From Burkholderiaceae bacterium (GTDB lineage: Bacteria; Pseudomonadota; Gammaproteobacteria; Burkholderiales; Burkholderiaceae_B), in assembly GCA_017983955.1 (NCBI GenBank), contig JAGOAJ010000013.1, positions 34,751-98,750 of the forward strand: DNA of 64,000 nucleotides, given 5' to 3'. A program made the position numbers and the translations under genes. Below, one piece after another: positions 32,583 to 39,773 of this stretch. Every line of letters starts with the position of its first letter. Position 1 is the stretch's first letter. The notes beneath the pieces were generated by a model. That model had not been told where the DNA came from, did not search any database, and saw nothing but the letters and a program-made list of their open reading frames with translations.

Positions 32583-34372
32583 TGCCAGGTGTCCCTAAGC
32601 GTAATAGCACGGTTGATAACGGGTTTTTCGGGGGTGGAGTCTTCGCGGTCAGCCACGAAGTAACCCAGGCGTTCGAACTGCCAACAGGCTTCTGGCGTGG
32701 CCTGCGTGCCGGGTTCCAGCCAGCCTTGTACAGTTTGGAAGGAGTTCGGGTTGATGGCTTGCAGGAAATCCTTGTCGCCGGCATCCGGGTGGGCATCGCT
32801 GAATAGGCGGTCGTAGAGGCGAATTTCAGCCGACACGGCATGAGCCGCGCTGACCCAGGTGATATTACCCTTGACCTTGACCGAGTCGGCGCCAGGCGTG
32901 CCGCTTTTGGTGTCGGGTAGGTATTCGGCATGGACTTCGATCACGTTGCCCTCGTCATCCTTGACGCAACCGGTGCAACGTACGATATAGCCGTATTTAA
33001 GGCGTACGGTGTTGCCTGGAAACAGACGGAAGTATTTTTTGGGCGGATCTTCGCGGAAATCGTCCCGTTCTATAAGCAATTCACTCGACAGCGGAAATTC
33101 GCGCTGTCCTGCATCCGGGTCGTGGGGATTGCGCGGAGCATGACATAGTTCGGTCTGGTCTTGCGGATAGTTGGTCAATACCAGGCGTATGGGATCCAAT
33201 ATAGCCACGGCGCGATCGGCCTTGGGGTCCAGATCGTCGCGTAAAGCCTGTTCCAGCGTGCTGTAGTCTATGTTTTGATTGGCTTTGGAAACGCCCAGAC
33301 GCTCACAAAACCGGCGTATGGACGATGGCGTATAGCCACGGCGACGTAAACCAGCCAATGTAGGCAAGCGTGGATCGTCCCAGCCATTGACATGGCCATC
33401 TTGCACCAGTTGTAGCAGCTTGCGCTTACTGGTGACCACATAGCTAAGATTCATGCGCGAGAATTCGTACTGCTGGGGCAGGGGTTCAGCCAGCTGACCC
33501 AGCTCTACCAGGCGATGAAGTATCCAGTCGTAATAGGGGCGTTGGTCTTCAAATTCCAGGGTGCATAGGCTATGGGTAATGCCTTCCAGCGCGTCTTCGA
33601 CGGGATGGGCCCAGGAGTACATGGGGTAGATGCACCAGTCAGTGCCTGTACGGTGATGTTCGACATGGCGTATGCGGTACATGACAGGATCACGCATATT
33701 GATATTGGGCGAGCCCATATCGATTTTGGCGCGCAAGGCCATGCTGCCGTCAGGGTGCTTGCCATCACGCATTTCGTGCAGCAGGCGCAGGGACTCTTCC
33801 ACAGGGCGGTCGCGCCAGGGGGAGTTGCTGCCTTTTTCAGTCAGCGTGCCACGGGTGGCCCGCATTTCGTCGGCCGATTGCTGGTCTACATAGGCATGGC
33901 CCGCGGCAACCAGGGCCAGCGCGAAGTCAAACATATAGCCAAAGTAGTCACTAGCGAAGTAGCAATTGTCTTCGCCCTGGTATTGCCATTCAAACCCCAG
34001 CCACTTAACCATTTCAATAATGGCTTTGACGTATTCGTCTTCTTCTTTTTCGGGGTTGGTGTCGTCAAAACGCAAATGGCAGGCACCAAGATAGTCGTGG
34101 GCCAGGCCAAAGTTCAGGCATATGCTTTTGGCATGGCCCAAGTGCAAATACCCATTGGGTTCTGGCGGGAAGCGTGTACGTATCCGCGCCGGATCGGCCT
34201 GGCCTTGCGATTGGACGGAAGCAGGCCCGGGTTTGCCTGCCCAACGCTTGTCGGCATAACGGCCAGCAGCCAGGTCATTGTCGATAATAGTGCGCAGAAA
34301 ATTGGACACCGCAGGAGGATTAGGCACAGAAGTCATATGGAAATCAGGGAAGTCATCAGTTGAAGTATGCAT
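32579..34372 (-). CDS. glnS: Glutaminyl-tRNA synthetase
   Basis: A 597-residue class I synthetase. [20 protein letters not shown] holds the HIGH motif (HLGH), [10 protein letters not shown] follows, and the KMSKS equivalent is [10 protein letters not shown]. The C-terminal anticodon-binding beta-barrels include [19 protein letters not shown]. It charges tRNA-Gln in the cytoplasm. ATG 34372 is used here, ATG 34336 (MTSVPNPPA) is an alternative. It is divergent from the CydA-like gene over 74 bp and overlaps minC by 4 bases, an unexpected coupling of translation and division genes. Confidence 0.96.
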
Positions 34373-34446
34373 TTTGCCACGTTCGGGGTGAATTGCCTGC
34401 GTATTCCAGGCAGAAACATCGAACTGGCTCTAAACTACTGCCTATT

Positions 34447-35787
34447 ATGACGTACTCGACATTATGGCTGGCCCAAACTCAGTTTTTCACTAGCCTGGGA
34501 TTCATGTTGTTGTTCCTGGCACTAGAGCTGGGCTTGGCCTGGGTGCTGCTGTATTTTAAGCTGCGCGCCCTAGGCCGGAATCCGAGTGTGTGGACCGCAG
34601 CCTACCGTTTTTGGGTAAGGGTGTTTGCCCTGGCCTTTGTCTTAAGCTTTGCAGCCAGTCTGCCAGTGCTGATACAACTGGGTACGTTATGGCCTGGCCT
34701 GATCAGCAAAATTGGCGATATTGCCGGGCCGTTGCTGGCGTCCGCGATGTTGTCCGCCTTTGTGTTCAAGTCCTGCTTTCTGGGGGCCATGTTGTTTGGG
34801 CAGCGCCGCTTGTCGTCGGCGGCTCATGTCGTGGTGGTAGCCTTGGTGGCAGTAGGGGTGGCCATCAGTACCTTTTTCTTGCTGGTCTTGCTGTCTTGGA
34901 TGCATACGCCGGACGGCGCCACCCTTATCAACAATCAGTATGTGATCAGCGATGGCTGGCGGGTCGTGTTCAATTCTGCCTTGCCTTGGTATGCCGCGTT
35001 GTTCGTACTGGTCAGCTTTCTAACGGTCGGTTTTCTGATGATGGGGGTGGTGGCCGTGCAGTCGCAACGCCACCCTATAGATATCAGCGATCGTTTGGTG
35101 GTGAAAACAGGCTTATACCTGGTCGCCGCTGCGTTAGTGTTACAGGTGTTCGCAGTCGCCGGCACAGGCTATGTGACGGCCAGTCACCAGCCTGCCAGGG
35201 CGGCGGCCACGGCAGGTTATTGGCACAGTGGTGGGACGCCTGATCTGGTGCTGTTTGGCTTGCCTGATACCCAGCAGGGTGTGAACCACAAGGCCTGGAG
35301 CTGGCCTGGCGCCAGCGCGCCGTGGTTAGGTCACAATCCCCAGGGGCAATGGCGTGGGCTGGATCAGTTTGCAGGTATGCAGCCTCCGGTGGCCCTGACC
35401 TTCTGGTCATTTCGGATCGCTGTGCTGACCGGCATAGCGATGATGCTGGCCACACTGCTGGGACTATGGAAGCTGCGGCGCGTTGATTATGATCCTGGCG
35501 TGTTGACCCAGTCTTTTCGGCGGGTGCTGGGCGGCATGGCATTTTCCGGCTGGGTGATGCTGTTGTCTGGCTTAGCGTGGTTACTGTTTGGCGCTTTACC
35601 CTATGCCGTGACTGGCACCATCACCTTAAGCGAAGTCGCGGTCAGCAGTTCATTTGAAGCGTTGCTGGCGGGGTATATGGGGTATTTGGCTGTCTACGGC
35701 GTTTTGCTAATTGGCTTCTTCCAATTGCTGGGACACATTGTCAGGTATGGGGTCGTGCCAATTGCCAGGCGCAGGGGGCGTGCATGA
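34447..35787 (+). CDS. CydA-like membrane protein lacking canonical haem ligands
   Basis: A 446-residue protein with about nine helices that can be aligned by eye with cytochrome bd subunit I over its length: AQTQFFTSLGFMLLF, the GDIAGPLL region, FGLPDTQQGVNHK, TFWSFRIAVLTG and the last helices. Yet the key positions differ. Against E. coli numbering, His19 is Met20, Glu99 is Ala100, Glu107 is Lys108, His186 is Asn176, Met393 (FRIMV) is Ala (FRIAV), Glu445 is Leu and GRQPW is GALPY. The Q-loop is short. It is therefore unlikely to bind haems as a normal bd oxidase does. ATG 34447 gives the family N-terminus. It overlaps cydB-like by 4 bases. Confidence 0.82.
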   Translation: MTYSTLWLAQTQFFTSLGFMLLFLALELGLAWVLLYFKLRALGRNPSVWTAAYRFWVRVFALAFVLSFAASLPVLIQLGTLWPGLISKIGDIAGPLLASAMLSAFVFKSCFLGAMLFGQRRLSSAAHVVVVALVAVGVAISTFFLLVLLSWMHTPDGATLINNQYVISDGWRVVFNSALPWYAALFVLVSFLTVGFLMMGVVAVQSQRHPIDISDRLVVKTGLYLVAAALVLQVFAVAGTGYVTASHQPARAAATAGYWHSGGTPDLVLFGLPDTQQGVNHKAWSWPGASAPWLGHNPQGQWRGLDQFAGMQPPVALTFWSFRIAVLTGIAMMLATLLGLWKLRRVDYDPGVLTQSFRRVLGGMAFSGWVMLLSGLAWLLFGALPYAVTGTITLSEVAVSSSFEALLAGYMGYLAVYGVLLIGFFQLLGHIVRYGVVPIARRRGRA

Positions 35788-36833
35788 TAGATTCATTGGC
35801 GATAGCCTTGGGGCTGGGTTCTCAGGATCCGGCGTTCTGGATGCCTTTGGTATTCATGGCCTTGTTTTTTGCGATCATCGTGGCTGGCACCGTGCTGGAT
35901 GGCTTCGATATCGGCGTGGGTTGCCTGGCCTTGTTTGCGCCGGTTGAATTGCGCCCGCGCATGTTGTCCTTGCTTAGCCCTTGGCGAGACGCCAATGAGT
36001 TTTGGTTGTTTTTGGGTTTAGGGCTGTTTATTGCTGCCTTCCCGCTAGCCTGGGGGCCGGTGATGCAAGCCATGCATTTACCCATGAGCCTGTTGGCTAT
36101 GGGCGTGCTGCTGCGTTCTGCTTGTTTTGAGCTGCGTCTGCGTGCGCCGGTCGAACAGCAGTCGCGTTGGCTGATAGGTTTTGCTCTGGGGTCCTGGCTG
36201 ACCGCCATGGCGCATGGGTTTTTGCTGGCCCAAGTGGTAGTTAACTACCAATATGATGGTGGCAATTTGTGGTTCAGTATTTTTCTGGGCTTTTGCGCTA
36301 TAGCCGCCTACTGTTTGCTGGGAGCTACCTGGCTGATTATGCGTGTGTCTGGTGAACTCAGGGTACGTGCCGTCATGTGGGGACGTCGGGCTGTGCGCTG
36401 GGCGGCCGCCGGGGCGGTAGGGGTGTCTGTAGTTTTGGCCTTTGCTAACTCTGGCATATTCCTTAAATGGAGCGATGGCCCGCAATGGCCCTATGTGATG
36501 GCTTTATGGACCTTGCTGTTGGCCTGTTTCATTACCGTAGAAATGAGCTTGCAACGCATGATCAATAGCAGCTACAGAAATACCGCACTGCCATTTTTCA
36601 TGACCTTGATGGTGTTTTTGATCGTGCTGGGTGGCCTGGGCTACAGCTTTTTTCCGTATTTGATGCTGGACGACATCACTATCTGGGATGCTGCGGCATC
36701 GGTGGACTCCCTGCGACTGATACTGACCGCCACCGTGCTGGCCCTACCAGTGGCGCTGGTGTTTAATTTATGGGTGTATTGGCGCATGTTTGGCTTGTCC
36801 ATAGCGCCTACTCCGCCGCGTTTTGATGGCTAG
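35784..36833 (+). CDS. CydB-like membrane protein
   Basis: A 349-residue protein that aligns with cytochrome bd subunit II. VLDGFDIGVGCLALFAP is the family N-terminal motif and SPWRDANEFWLFLGLGLFIAAFPLAW matches the conserved second loop and helix, with the quinol-oxidase Asp retained. The end (FNLWVYWRMFGLSI) also matches. CydB carries no haem ligands itself, so its conservation says only that it packs against a CydA-like partner, here the divergent protein just upstream (4-base overlap). The ClcB-like gene starts 8 bases before its end. Confidence 0.85.
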   Translation: MIDSLAIALGLGSQDPAFWMPLVFMALFFAIIVAGTVLDGFDIGVGCLALFAPVELRPRMLSLLSPWRDANEFWLFLGLGLFIAAFPLAWGPVMQAMHLPMSLLAMGVLLRSACFELRLRAPVEQQSRWLIGFALGSWLTAMAHGFLLAQVVVNYQYDGGNLWFSIFLGFCAIAAYCLLGATWLIMRVSGELRVRAVMWGRRAVRWAAAGAVGVSVVLAFANSGIFLKWSDGPQWPYVMALWTLLLACFITVEMSLQRMINSSYRNTALPFFMTLMVFLIVLGGLGYSFFPYLMLDDITIWDAAASVDSLRLILTATVLALPVALVFNLWVYWRMFGLSIAPTPPRFDG

Positions 36834-38634
36834 CCGGTTTTTCGGCTACCGTGTCGTGCGGGCTTTTCAGTCCTTTAGGTCGCGTCTGGGTGGTTGGCTA
36901 TGGCTGTCCGATTTGCCCGCCATGCTGTGCTGGGCGGTGCTGGCGGGCGTGCTGGGCGCTGGGGCTACGATAGCCTTTCACGAAGGCATGGGGCTGGTAC
37001 AGCGGCTGGTCACGGGTAACAGTGGTTCCATAATTTCGGTCACCCAAGGCTTGCCCTGGTACGGACGTTTACTGTTTCCCGCCTTGGGCGCGCTGGCGGC
37101 TGGCTGTTTGTTATGGTTGGCTGCCAAGGTCCAGGGGGGTGATCATTCCGATTACATGGAGTCCGTGGCGATAGGCGATGGGCGCCTGTCGATACGGCGC
37201 GGCTTGTTGCGGTCCTTGTCATCCTTGCTGTCGGTGGCCTCGGGTGGTTCCATAGGACGCGAAGGGGCGATGGTGCATCTGGGTGCCTTGGGTGCATCCG
37301 CCATAGGTCGATTCACCTCATTTGGCACAGCGCGCTTACGCTTGTTGGTGGCTTGTGGCGCGGCAGCTGGGGTGGCAGCGGCTTATGGGGCACCCTTGGC
37401 GGCAGCGGTGTTTGTGGCTGAAATTGTGTTGGGCGTCATGACCATGCAAAGCTTTGGCCCCCTGCTGGTGGCAGCGGCCTCTGCCAATATCGTGATGCGC
37501 TTCAGCGGCCATTATCAGACCACGTACGCCATGACAGCTATGCCCCAGTTGTCCGGTCCTGAGATCTTGCCATTTATTCTATTGGGTGTGGTGGCTGGGT
37601 TGGCCGCACCTATGTTTCTTAAGTTTATGGGCCTGTGTCGTCAGCAGTTTCAGCGCACGGGTTTGCCACTGCCTTTGCGCCTGGCATTAGGGGGGCTGCT
37701 GTTGGGCTTGATCCTGATTGTGATGCCGGAAGTTGCAGGTAATGGCTACAGCGTGGTGCATTCTTTGCTACATACGTCCTGGGCCTGGTATGCCGTAGTG
37801 CTGATACTGGCACTGAAAGTGCTGGCAACGGGGCTGACGGTAGGTTCGGGCGCGGTCGGCGGTGTTTTTACACCTGCGCTGTTTGTCGGGGCTGCATTGG
37901 GCACCTTGTTTGGTCAGTTGTTCGCTTTGGTATGGCCAGACATAACAGCGCCAGTGTATTTTTTCACCTTGGTCGGCATGGGCAGTTTTCTGGGGGCGGC
38001 GACCAGTGCGCCCTTTATGGCGATCTTGATGATATTCGAGATGACGCTCAGTTATCAGGTCGTCTTACCCTTGATACTGGCGGTGGTGGTGGCGTACTTT
38101 GTGGCTAGGGCGATGGCTGAGGTCGCTATGTACGATATTACGGCGACTCGCGAACGTGATGCCCGTATGCGCAGGCAGCTGCGCCATACCTTGCTGGAGC
38201 AGTTGATTAAGCCCGCTACCACTGTGGTTCTGGCGAACGCGCCGGTGAGTGAGGTCGTACAGATGTTTATGGACTATCCGGTCAAGTATTTGTATGTGGT
38301 TGACCAAGATAATACGTATCAGGGGGTGATTGCCCAGCACAGCCTAAGTCGTTTATTGTGGGATCAGGCCGATGCCAGCAGCAAGACTGCCGCCGATGTC
38401 CTGCAACTGGATGCGATCAAGACCCTGCATCCTGACATGACCCTGGATCAAGCCCAGGACTATTTTGTGCAGTTTCGTGGCGAGCGTCTGCCGGTGGTGA
38501 CGCGTGATGGGCCGCCGCGTTTGCTAGGTGTGGTGTACAAGTCCTCCTTGTTGGAAACGTACAGTGCCCTGAAAAAGGCCATGGACGCCAGCGACGCAGT
38601 TATCTTTGATTTTCCACCAGGACGGCGTAGTTAA
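36826..38634 (+). CDS. ClcB-like CLC chloride transporter with C-terminal CBS domains
   Basis: A 602-residue CLC protein. The N-terminal 430 residues follow E. coli ClcB: DHSDYMESVAIGDGRL, SGGSIGREGAMVHLGALGAS with the gating Glu, AYGAPLAAAVFVAEIVLG with the internal proton Glu, and SGAVGGVFTPALFVGAALGTLFGQ. The residues from about 450 on form a CBS pair (ATTVVLANAPVSEVVQMFMDYP, then KTLHPDMTLDQAQDYF). The retained glutamates suggest a proton/chloride antiporter. The CBS pair, absent from E. coli ClcB, may sense adenine nucleotides. It overlaps the CydB-like gene by 8 bases and is probably cotranscribed. Confidence 0.9.
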   Translation: MASRFFGYRVVRAFQSFRSRLGGWLWLSDLPAMLCWAVLAGVLGAGATIAFHEGMGLVQRLVTGNSGSIISVTQGLPWYGRLLFPALGALAAGCLLWLAAKVQGGDHSDYMESVAIGDGRLSIRRGLLRSLSSLLSVASGGSIGREGAMVHLGALGASAIGRFTSFGTARLRLLVACGAAAGVAAAYGAPLAAAVFVAEIVLGVMTMQSFGPLLVAAASANIVMRFSGHYQTTYAMTAMPQLSGPEILPFILLGVVAGLAAPMFLKFMGLCRQQFQRTGLPLPLRLALGGLLLGLILIVMPEVAGNGYSVVHSLLHTSWAWYAVVLILALKVLATGLTVGSGAVGGVFTPALFVGAALGTLFGQLFALVWPDITAPVYFFTLVGMGSFLGAATSAPFMAILMIFEMTLSYQVVLPLILAVVVAYFVARAMAEVAMYDITATRERDARMRRQLRHTLLEQLIKPATTVVLANAPVSEVVQMFMDYPVKYLYVVDQDNTYQGVIAQHSLSRLLWDQADASSKTAADVLQLDAIKTLHPDMTLDQAQDYFVQFRGERLPVVTRDGPPRLLGVVYKSSLLETYSALKKAMDASDAVIFDFPPGRRS

Positions 38635-38657
38635 GGCCGACAGTAAGGGGTTTGCTT

Positions 38658-39773
38658 TTGAATACCGTTGGGCGCTTTCTTGTTGTTTTACTGGGTGGCG
38701 TGTGTAGCGCCCTGGCGTTTGCCAACGGCCCGGATATACGCGATTTGGCGCCTTTTCGGCTCTACCCTGTGTCTGAGCCATCAGTCGGGCCTGCCGTGCC
38801 TCTACCGGAGCCTGATAGCCTGACAGAGGGGTTTTATGGCCTGGGGTCTGATCAGGATATAGACACCATGGATGACTACGATGTTTTTTGGCGTCAGGAA
38901 GATTTTCAGAAGTGGCGTTGGGACCGTTTAGGCGCGTCGGCGACGCAGGCTACTGAAGCGCAGTGGAAACGTGGTCCACGCACACGTGCGGCGTGGTTGC
39001 CACGGGCATCTACCGATCCCTGGACACTGGGTGTCAGCAATTGGCGCTATGCAGGCGAGCGAGGTCTGGATGTGACGCTGGGCAGTCACCAGCTTATGGT
39101 GCCATCCTGGAGCAGCGCTACCCGCATGGGCGGTGTCAGTGTCACGCAGTCAGACCGGTCGGCTATGGGTAACTGGGATTATGCCCTGTCACTAGGTGCG
39201 CTGGACTATGCTCCGGCACAGCAACAGGGTGATCTGGTGTATGGCCCGACAGCCAGTAATGCGGTGCTGCGCTATGGGCTCAGTTCACGGTTTATTCTGG
39301 AAAGTCAGTTGGAAACAGCGCCTGGATTGGTGACTGCGGGCCTGGGCGCGCAGTATCAAACGCCAGGCTGGGGTTCCTTGCATGCAGGCGTTAGCCAGGC
39401 CAGCACGAATCAGCCATCTGGCTGGAAGTATCAAGCGGCTTATCAGGTGGATGTCACAGACACCCTGAATTTATCATGGCTGGGCGCGGCCTATACCCAG
39501 GGCTATGCCGATCTGGGCCATTACCAGCAGGGCGCGGCGAGTTTGGCGGGGGCTCGTCAGCAAGTGGCCGCTAGGCTGTCCTTGGGACGCTGGGGCGATG
39601 TGGGTGGGGTTTACGAAAATACGCGCAATTCCCTAGGCGAGCTCAAGCGCAGTTTTGGCCTGACTCAGCAGCTTTGGTATAGCTCCAATTTGCTGATTGG
39701 GCTCAAGGCCGAGCGCGAAGTACACAGCGGCGACTATGATATAGGCCTTCATCTGTCGGTACCTATACATTAA
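38658..39773 (+). CDS. Usher-like outer-membrane half-barrel protein
   Basis: A 371-residue exported protein. TTG 38658 is preferred because AAGGGG lies 7 bases before it; TTG 38652 is an alternative. A signal peptide ends [10 protein letters not shown]. After a 90-residue linker with Asp- and Trp-rich sequence ([20 protein letters not shown]) come alternating beta-strands resembling the barrel of fimbrial ushers: [61 protein letters not shown], and [15 protein letters not shown]. The plug, N- and C-terminal domains of a FimD/PapC usher are missing, and no chaperone or pilin genes adjoin. It sits 23 bp after clcB-like and 2 bp before recQ. It could be a usher remnant or a small barrel with a new job. 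Confidence 0.6.

What the first reader, a model, noticed from the sequence alone, without database searches (positions are those of the whole stretch)
34447..35787. CydA homologue with all canonical haem and proton-path residues replaced
By-eye alignment with E. coli CydA puts Met at His19, Ala at Glu99, Lys at Glu107, Asn at His186, Ala at Met393, Leu at Glu445 and GALPY at GRQPW, while the helices, FWSFRI and other framework stay alignable. CydB-like partner stays well conserved. This pair is unlikely to be a normal quinol oxidase and could be a haem-free transporter, sensor or electron-transfer unit. Divergent bd-type families are known in literature, so it may belong to one already catalogued.
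Basis: partly seen in the sequence, partly recalled or inferred. Interest (0 to 1): 0.8.

Follow-up and report, generated by a model that had tools for sequence, protein, structure and literature searches.

The report
Oxidase-like protein pair without haem sites
A two-protein membrane complex that looks like a bacterial oxygen-using respiratory enzyme, but has lost the residues known to hold its haem groups, has been kept by natural selection across a family of bacteria, so it most likely does a different, still unknown job.

Summary
The window gene (34447-35787) is a full-length CydA homologue lacking all canonical haem ligands, the E99/E107 acidic pair and E257. Its predicted fold is still that of CydA.

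It is not a lone oddity. Thirty-nine such sequences form one fully supported clade on a long stem among canonical, short-Q-loop (CIO-type) bd oxidases. They sit beside glnS in 40 of 41 loci; none of 39 canonical loci does in the flanks held. By score, the form occurs in 150 of 268 family genomes (30 of 43 genera). Selection is purifying, and CydB' is the more constrained subunit, the reverse of the closest canonical oxidases. Four genomes listed at 99% completeness have this pair as their only CydA and CydB homologues, so it is no obligate helper of a true bd oxidase.

Probably a haem-depleted, non-oxidase complex. A charged entrance at the subunit interface survives, with E107 changed to Lys and CydB W57 to Arg; transport or ligand sensing there is my inference. 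A haem or metal at new residues of CydB' is not excluded. Bordetella cydAB3, listed in print as a predicted high-affinity oxidase, is very probably the orthologue.

The parts
34447..35787 (+). cydA': haem-depleted CydA homologue, 446 aa; M20 (E. coli H19), A100 (E99), K108 (E107), L185 (H186), A325 (M393), L380 (E445), A383 (R448)
   Evidence: fold
35784..36833 (+). cydB': CydB-like partner, 349 aa, start overlaps the cydA' stop by 4 bases; R68 replaces canonical Trp57; clade-specific H144, C171, E253
   Evidence: fold
34429..34437 (+). TCTAAACTA, likely -10 region of a promoter 18 bases before the ATG, so the mRNA would have almost no leader
   Evidence: motif within 160 bases upstream in 28 of 35 derived loci (23 of them at exactly -18), 0 of 32 canonical ones; position
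34768..34770 (+). codon of K108, the clade's charge reversal at the proton-donor position E107
   Evidence: K in 37 of 39 derived, E in 32 of 32 canonical; codon
35985..35987 (+). codon of CydB' R68, at E. coli CydB Trp57
   Evidence: R in 39 of 39 derived, W in 31 of 31 canonical; codon
32579..34372 (-). glnS (named from its sequence, no family search), divergent neighbour; marks the locus, not thought to be part of the system
   Evidence: beside cydA'B' in 40 of 41 loci; beside none of 39 distinct canonical loci in the flanks held
36823..38634 (+). ClcA-like channel gene (named from its sequence) overlapping the end of cydB' by 11 bases
   Evidence: found in the fetched stretch of 16 of 41 loci, directly after cydB' in 6

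Best explanation
cydA'B' is a two-subunit membrane complex that arose once, in an ancestor of this Alcaligenaceae-type family, from a CIO-type cytochrome bd quinol oxidase, and has stopped being an oxidase. SHOWN by sequence: the canonical haem ligands, Glu257 of the Q-loop and the E99/E107 pair are lost in the window and, but for a few residues, in the core group; predicted fold, pairing and genomic place are kept; selection is purifying and stronger on CydB'. INFERRED: the core group carries none of the three bd haems; the emptied CydA' is mainly a scaffold, and the work is done by CydB' and its interface with CydA', in the cytoplasmic entrance that served as the proton channel. That entrance is kept and made more positive (CydA' R54, R58, K108; CydB' R68, D69, R111, E116, R118, R120). 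There it most likely binds or passes a small, perhaps anionic, solute or an ion. My split: not a quinol oxidase 0.93; no haem in the core group 0.78; transport or channel function 0.35; ligand sensing or other non-redox role 0.28.
For: Ligand columns: H19, E99, E107, N148, H186, E257, M393, E445 and R448 are invariant in 32 of 32 canonical CydA and gone in the window; in the 29 core rows E107 is K in 28 and R in 1, and none keeps E99, H186 or E257. One clade of 39 rows, support 100/100, stem 1.22, among canonical rows. AlphaFold2 model of CydA' pLDDT 90.1; Foldseek's first hits are solved bd oxidases (7ose_A E 3.8e-20; 7nkz_A TM 0.88). CydB' model pLDDT 85.6, CydB hits first. Constraint reversed: among 29 core genomes CydB' is more alike than CydA' in 403 of 406 comparisons; among 14 sister canonical genomes CydB is more alike in 6 of 91. 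dN/dS low. glnS linkage 40 of 41. Sole PF01654 protein in four genomes listed at 99% completeness and sole PF02322 protein in the same four. Proton-channel residues per PMC13189123 (passages): Lys53, Lys57, Glu107, Glu74 of CydA, Asp105, Asp58 of CydB. In the clade: R54 37 of 39, R58 39 of 39, K108 37 of 39, CydB' E116 39 of 39, R68 39 of 39, D69 35 of 39.
Against: No substrate, ligand or phenotype is known. Three rows outside the core (L025, L077, L078) keep both H19 and E445, so haems b595 and d are not excluded there. K108 or C110 in CydA', or H144, C171 and E253 in CydB', could ligate a haem or metal in principle. Of four shortened members three lack D69 and one has Q at K108, so the interface is not absolute. 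Much of the arginine conservation may only reflect membrane topology. Deleting cyd3 in Bordetella bronchiseptica gave no growth defect in air and no persistence defect in mice, and some B. pertussis strains carry a broken cydB3 (PMC11257404, passages).
Confidence: 0.58

Rival explanations
1. It still binds a haem or a metal through new or remaining residues (Lys108 or Cys110 of CydA'; His144, Cys171, Glu253 of CydB'; H19/E445 in some branches) and works as a redox or gas sensor or electron-transfer unit.
For: K108 lies where E107 sits, 7.8 A from the haem d iron in E. coli bd-I (PMC13189123, passages); Lys can ligate haem (recalled). CydB' has gained H144 (29 of 39 derived, 0 of 31 canonical), C171 (36 and 2) and E253 (34 and 0), all within predicted helices. 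Three rows keep H19 and E445.
Against: H144 is missing in 10 of 39. In CydA' the conserved M115 and H127 are also conserved in canonical rows, and other His of the window lie in loops or within five residues of a helix end. No CxxCH. G66, G70, N80 and N148, invariant in 17 canonical rows, are replaced in most core rows (that they lie near the haems is recalled).
Confidence: 0.15
2. It is an accessory or assembly partner of a true bd oxidase, for example by subunit swapping.
For: The window's own genome has a canonical CydA. Of the 150 genomes with a high-scoring match all but five show further matches (most of these were not read).
Against: Four genomes listed at 99% completeness have this pair as their only CydA and CydB homologues.
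Confidence: 0.1
3. It is a decaying duplicate with no function.
For: CydA' evolves fast; shortened copies with reading frames of 378-402 aa in a few genera and one copy with an in-frame stop. 13 of 43 genera lack a match at the score threshold, though at least five of these (g15, g28, g32, g33, g61) hold lower-scoring ligand-less forms. Broken cydB3 in some B. pertussis strains (PMC11257404, passages).
Against: dN/dS 0.02-0.23, many invariant residues in CydB', a promoter motif at a fixed place in most loci and glnS linkage in 40 of 41 loci.
Confidence: 0.08
4. It is a working quinol oxidase with unusual chemistry, as annotated.
For: Fold and subunit pairing; cydAB3 is listed as a predicted high-affinity oxidase (PMC11257404, passages).
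Against: All canonical haem ligands and E257 absent in the window. B. bronchiseptica with cyd3 as the only oxidase could not be made, though low transcription and the same failure for four other loci make this weak.
Confidence: 0.03

Closest known systems
CIO-type cytochrome bd quinol oxidases (CioAB; short Q-loop)
   Same: Predicted fold, gene pair, short Q-loop; the clade branches among such canonical rows. That CIO types lack the Q-loop extension is from PMC5322542 (passages)
   Different: No canonical haem ligands, no E99/E107, no E257; CydB' constrained more than CydA'; glnS locus
Bordetella bronchiseptica CydAB3 (BB4012-BB4011)
   Same: Very probably the orthologue: third bd locus beside one cydX-bearing cydAB and one cioAB; the published 2373-bp deletion compares with 2372 bases computed in relative G141
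   Different: Listed as a predicted high-affinity oxidase; no mention of lost haem ligands in the passages I saw
OR-N type bd-like proteins (Nitrospira, Nitrospinota)
   Same: Divergent bd-superfamily members not expected to oxidise quinol (passages)
   Different: Described there as putative oxygen reductases taking electrons from cytochrome c
Canonical CydB
   Same: A haem-free subunit of related fold; the CydA' model also matches CydB structures (TM by query length 0.45-0.59)
   Different: Here both halves of the complex appear to lack the bd haem sites

Membership tests
CIO-type bd quinol oxidase | haem ligands H19, H186, M393, E445 | tested here: not met
   window M20, L185, A325, L380
CIO-type bd quinol oxidase | acidic pair E99 and E107 at the oxygen site | tested here: not met
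   A100, K108; 0 of 29 core rows keep either
CIO-type bd quinol oxidase | Q-loop K252 and E257 | tested here: not met
   K252 is K or R in 29 of 29 core rows, E257 kept in 0 of 29
CIO-type bd quinol oxidase | CydA fold and CydB partner | tested here: met
   (predicted models, each subunit alone)
CIO-type bd quinol oxidase | phylogenetic descent | tested here: met
   clade of 39 nested among canonical rows, 100/100
CIO-type bd quinol oxidase | haem b/d content and oxygen reduction | not testable with these tools
   needs purified protein
OR-C type | CxxCH haem c motif (recalled from Murali 2021, not held) | tested here: not met
   no CxxCH in either protein
OR-N type | oxygen-site haem ligands kept, quinol site lost (recalled; other papers seen in passages only) | tested here: not met
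   oxygen-site ligands lost in the window; the published OR-N profiles were not at hand
obligate partner of canonical bd oxidase | always found together with canonical CydAB | tested here: not met
   G001, G007, G236, G167

The most novel reading that the evidence does not exclude
A respiratory oxidase has been turned, once, into a haem-free membrane transporter or ion/ligand-gated unit: the emptied CydA serves as scaffold, CydB becomes the working subunit, and the former proton entrance, reversed in charge by E107-to-Lys and W57-to-Arg, becomes an anion- or solute-binding path.
Probability: 0.25. Interest if true: 0.88.

Novelty: new variant of a known kind. Interest (0 to 1): 0.7.

Why it matters
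If right, much of a bacterial family (named members here include Castellaniella and Paenalcaligenes, and very probably Bordetella) carries a bd 'oxidase' that cannot be an ordinary one, so oxidase counts in respiratory maps of these bacteria need correction. It also offers a natural series of partly dismantled forms (E99, E107 and H186 gone throughout, H19 and E445 still present in some) for studying how a respiratory enzyme is reused, and asks what CydB can do without bd haems.

Tried and rejected
Obligate helper of a canonical oxidase: rejected. Patchy or repeated origin: rejected, one clade at one locus. Oxygen-regulated promoter: I scanned 160 bases upstream of 35 derived loci for an FNR-type box (consensus recalled); none was within 1 mismatch, two were at 2. 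Of 10 canonical CIO loci three were at 1, two of them near-identical; of 14 sister canonical loci none was at 1. Presence outside the family: in 399 genomes of the order and 369 of the class (both samples include some family members) no match outside f1 exceeded 420 bits. Twelve hits outside f1 whose residues I read (L030-L032, L040, L041, L045, L050, L113, L114, L155-L157) were all canonical. Independent haem loss elsewhere would not show in this test. A conserved operon partner: the ClcA-like gene (16 of 41 loci) and a kinase/regulator-like pair lie downstream in many loci but not all, so no function is read from them.

Row handling: L047 gave a 5-residue CydB by my start-finding rule; it was in the 105-pair count and left out (91 pairs, A 55.3, B 54.4, CydB higher in 40). 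L037 has a frame change near its start; its 'H' at position 19 is an artefact, and it is a gap, as is L021 (start set too late). L053 and L054 are two contig-end pieces of one gene, kept apart and left out of the tree. L049 and L097 are one canonical gene with a cut N-terminus (K read at 19). One search ended with a script error before its CydB part; one search replaced it. On checking, one search showed new conserved residues in CydB' (H144, C171, E253), so I lowered 'no haem' from 0.85 to 0.78, the sensing/non-redox share from 0.30 to 0.28 and the overall confidence from 0.60 to 0.58, and raised the haem/metal rival from 0.12 to 0.15.

Full report
WHAT IS THERE. The window holds a gene pair at 34447-35787 and 35784-36833 on the + strand, coding for 446 and 349 aa. 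The first matches Pfam Cyt_bd_oxida_I at 290.8 bits over nearly the whole model, the second Cyt_bd_oxida_II at 182 bits. NCBIfam equivalog cut-offs are missed by far. The window's own genome also has an ordinary CydA (558.6 bits). Solved bd oxidases align over most of their length.

LIGANDS. On alignments with E. coli CydA and other canonical sequences, every canonical haem ligand of the window protein is replaced: H19 by M20, H186 by L185, M393 by A325, E445 by L380; so are E99 (A100), E107 (K108), R448 (A383), N148 (L149), D239 (A238) and E257 (A256). In one search all 32 canonical rows keep all of these. In the larger set, 38 of 41 canonical-like rows keep all eight sites checked; the others are one gene read twice with a cut N-terminus, and one fragment.

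A FAMILY, NOT AN ODDITY. Searching 61 genomes (own plus 60 relatives) gave matches of either kind in 44. A profile of 28 such sequences (A1) searched in 268 genomes of the family gave 150 genomes in 30 of 43 genera with a match of at least 449 bits, my count of the listed rows. These are assigned by score; residues were read in the 39 tree rows and about 20 further loci. No sequence that I read as canonical scored above 419.9 bits. Lower-scoring ligand-less forms occur in further genera. In 399 genomes of the order and 369 of the class, no match outside the family exceeded 420 bits.

ORIGIN. In a maximum-likelihood tree of 68 rows, 39 ligand-less rows form one clade with 100/100 support on a stem of 1.22 changes per column, among canonical rows of CIO type. 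The base of the clade is unresolved, and four long-branched rows (L042, L141, L143, L144) are of unsure place. The locus is the same throughout: cydA'B' lies beside a divergent glnS in 40 of 41 loci including the window, the exception being L144. None of 39 distinct canonical loci shows glnS in its 1.5-3 kb flanks. So it most likely arose once and was passed on in place.

ORDER OF LOSS. All 39 rows lack E99 and H186, and E107 is K in 37, R in 1 and Q in 1. Of 6 rows outside the core, H19 survives in 4, E445 in 4, R448 in 4, and H19 with E445 in 3 (L025, L077, L078); M393 survives in L025 and a few core-type rows. So E99, E107 and H186 probably went on the stem, the others later and perhaps more than once; this is inference, as the base is unresolved. 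The three rows might still hold haems.

SELECTION. Nei-Gojobori dN/dS for 13 close pairs is 0.07-0.23 for CydA' and 0.02-0.14 for CydB' (a 14th pair was identical). Several dS values exceed 1, so these are rough. The highest values (0.23) are in L107/L108 and L110/L150. In 406 pairs of the 29 core genomes CydA' averages 49.6% and CydB' 63.3% identity, CydB' higher in 403. In 91 pairs of the 14 sister canonical genomes the figures are 61.1% and 54.0%, CydB higher in 6. In 91 pairs of another CIO group they are 55.3% and 54.4%, CydB higher in 40. Constraint has moved from the catalytic to the second subunit.

INDEPENDENCE. Four genomes listed at 99% completeness (G001, same genus; G007; G236; G167) have this protein as their only PF01654 match and its partner as their only PF02322 match. 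The pair does not need a true bd oxidase.

FOLD. AlphaFold2 on A1 gives pLDDT 90.1 and pTM 0.89. Foldseek finds bd oxidase CydA chains first (7ose_A, 7nkz_A). CydB' gives pLDDT 85.6 and CydB chains first.

WHAT IS CONSERVED. PMC13189123 (passages) puts the E. coli proton channel at the CydA-CydB interface with Lys53, Lys57, Glu107, Glu74 of CydA and Asp105, Asp58 of CydB. In the clade these are R54 (37 of 39), R58 (39 of 39), K108 (37 of 39), a hydrophobic residue for Glu74 (39 of 39; 29 of 32 canonical rows lack Glu there too), E116 (39 of 39) and D69 (35 of 39). CydB Trp57 is Arg in 39 of 39, against Trp in 31 of 31 canonical rows. So the entrance is kept while its inner end is reversed in charge. 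I infer a polar, net positive cavity at the interface as the functional site; salt bridges that merely hold the subunits together are a duller reading of the same facts. CydB' has also gained residues in predicted helices: E253 (34 of 39; canonical 0 of 31), C171 (36; 2), H144 (29; 0). They may belong to the new function, or bind a haem or metal; I cannot tell.

EXPRESSION. The sequence TCTA[AC]ACTA stands within 160 bases upstream in 28 of 35 derived loci, in 23 of them exactly 18 bases before the start used, and in 0 of 32 canonical loci. This fits a -10 element giving an almost leaderless mRNA and supports the ATG at 34447 over the TTG at 34360 listed mechanically. No FNR-type box was evident.

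LITERATURE. PMC11257404 (abstract and passages) lists eight oxidase loci in B. bronchiseptica, among them cydAB1 with cydX, cioAB, and cydAB3 (BB4012-4011), the last predicted to be high-affinity. Its cydAB3 deletion spans 2373 bp from 41 nt before cydA3 to nt 994 of cydB3. The same span in G141 (4.1 Mb, with a degraded third CydA homologue) is 2372 bases by my counting. By elimination and length, cydAB3 is very probably this family. There, deletion did not change growth in air or persistence in mice, transcripts were low, and no strain with cyd3 alone could be made; four other loci failed likewise, so that is weak. PMC1891110 (passages) lists BB4011/BP3224 among genes with a length-variable homopolymer tract. 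PMC13367067 (passages) repeats cydAB3 as bd-type and notes that these oxidases have not been characterised biochemically. I found no paper describing loss of haem ligands in this group. Murali 2021, the classification of the superfamily, was not held, so a mention there cannot be excluded.

VERDICT. A real, selected, haem-depleted descendant of a CIO-type bd oxidase; almost certainly not a quinol oxidase; function inferred only in outline.

Noticed in passing
window 34429-34446, and 27 other derived loci: A promoter-like motif, mostly at a fixed distance from the start codon, suggests nearly leaderless transcripts conserved across the family.
   Followed up: partly
window 36213-36542, codons 144 to 253 of cydB': CydB' has clade-specific H144, C171 and E253 in predicted helices, absent or rare in canonical CydB: candidates for a new site.
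   Followed up: partly
L116, L117, L132, L134, L144 and others, downstream of cydB': A histidine-kinase-like and response-regulator-like pair (judged from the sequences, no family search) lies next to cydB' in many of the 19 loci listed, usually on the opposite strand; it is not beside the window's pair.
   Followed up: no
L140, L141, L143, L144: Shortened CydA' proteins (reading frames 378-402 aa) in which much of the Q-loop region is missing while CydB' is 340-352 aa in three of the four.
   Followed up: partly
L025, L077, L078: Members that keep H19, E445 and R448 but not E99, E107 or H186: possible natural intermediates.
   Followed up: partly
window 38652-39773: An open reading frame of 373 aa of unknown function between the ClcA-like gene and recQ, with similar frames near the locus in many relatives.
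   Followed up: no
L094: A cydA' copy with one in-frame stop codon in a 91%-complete genome.
   Followed up: no
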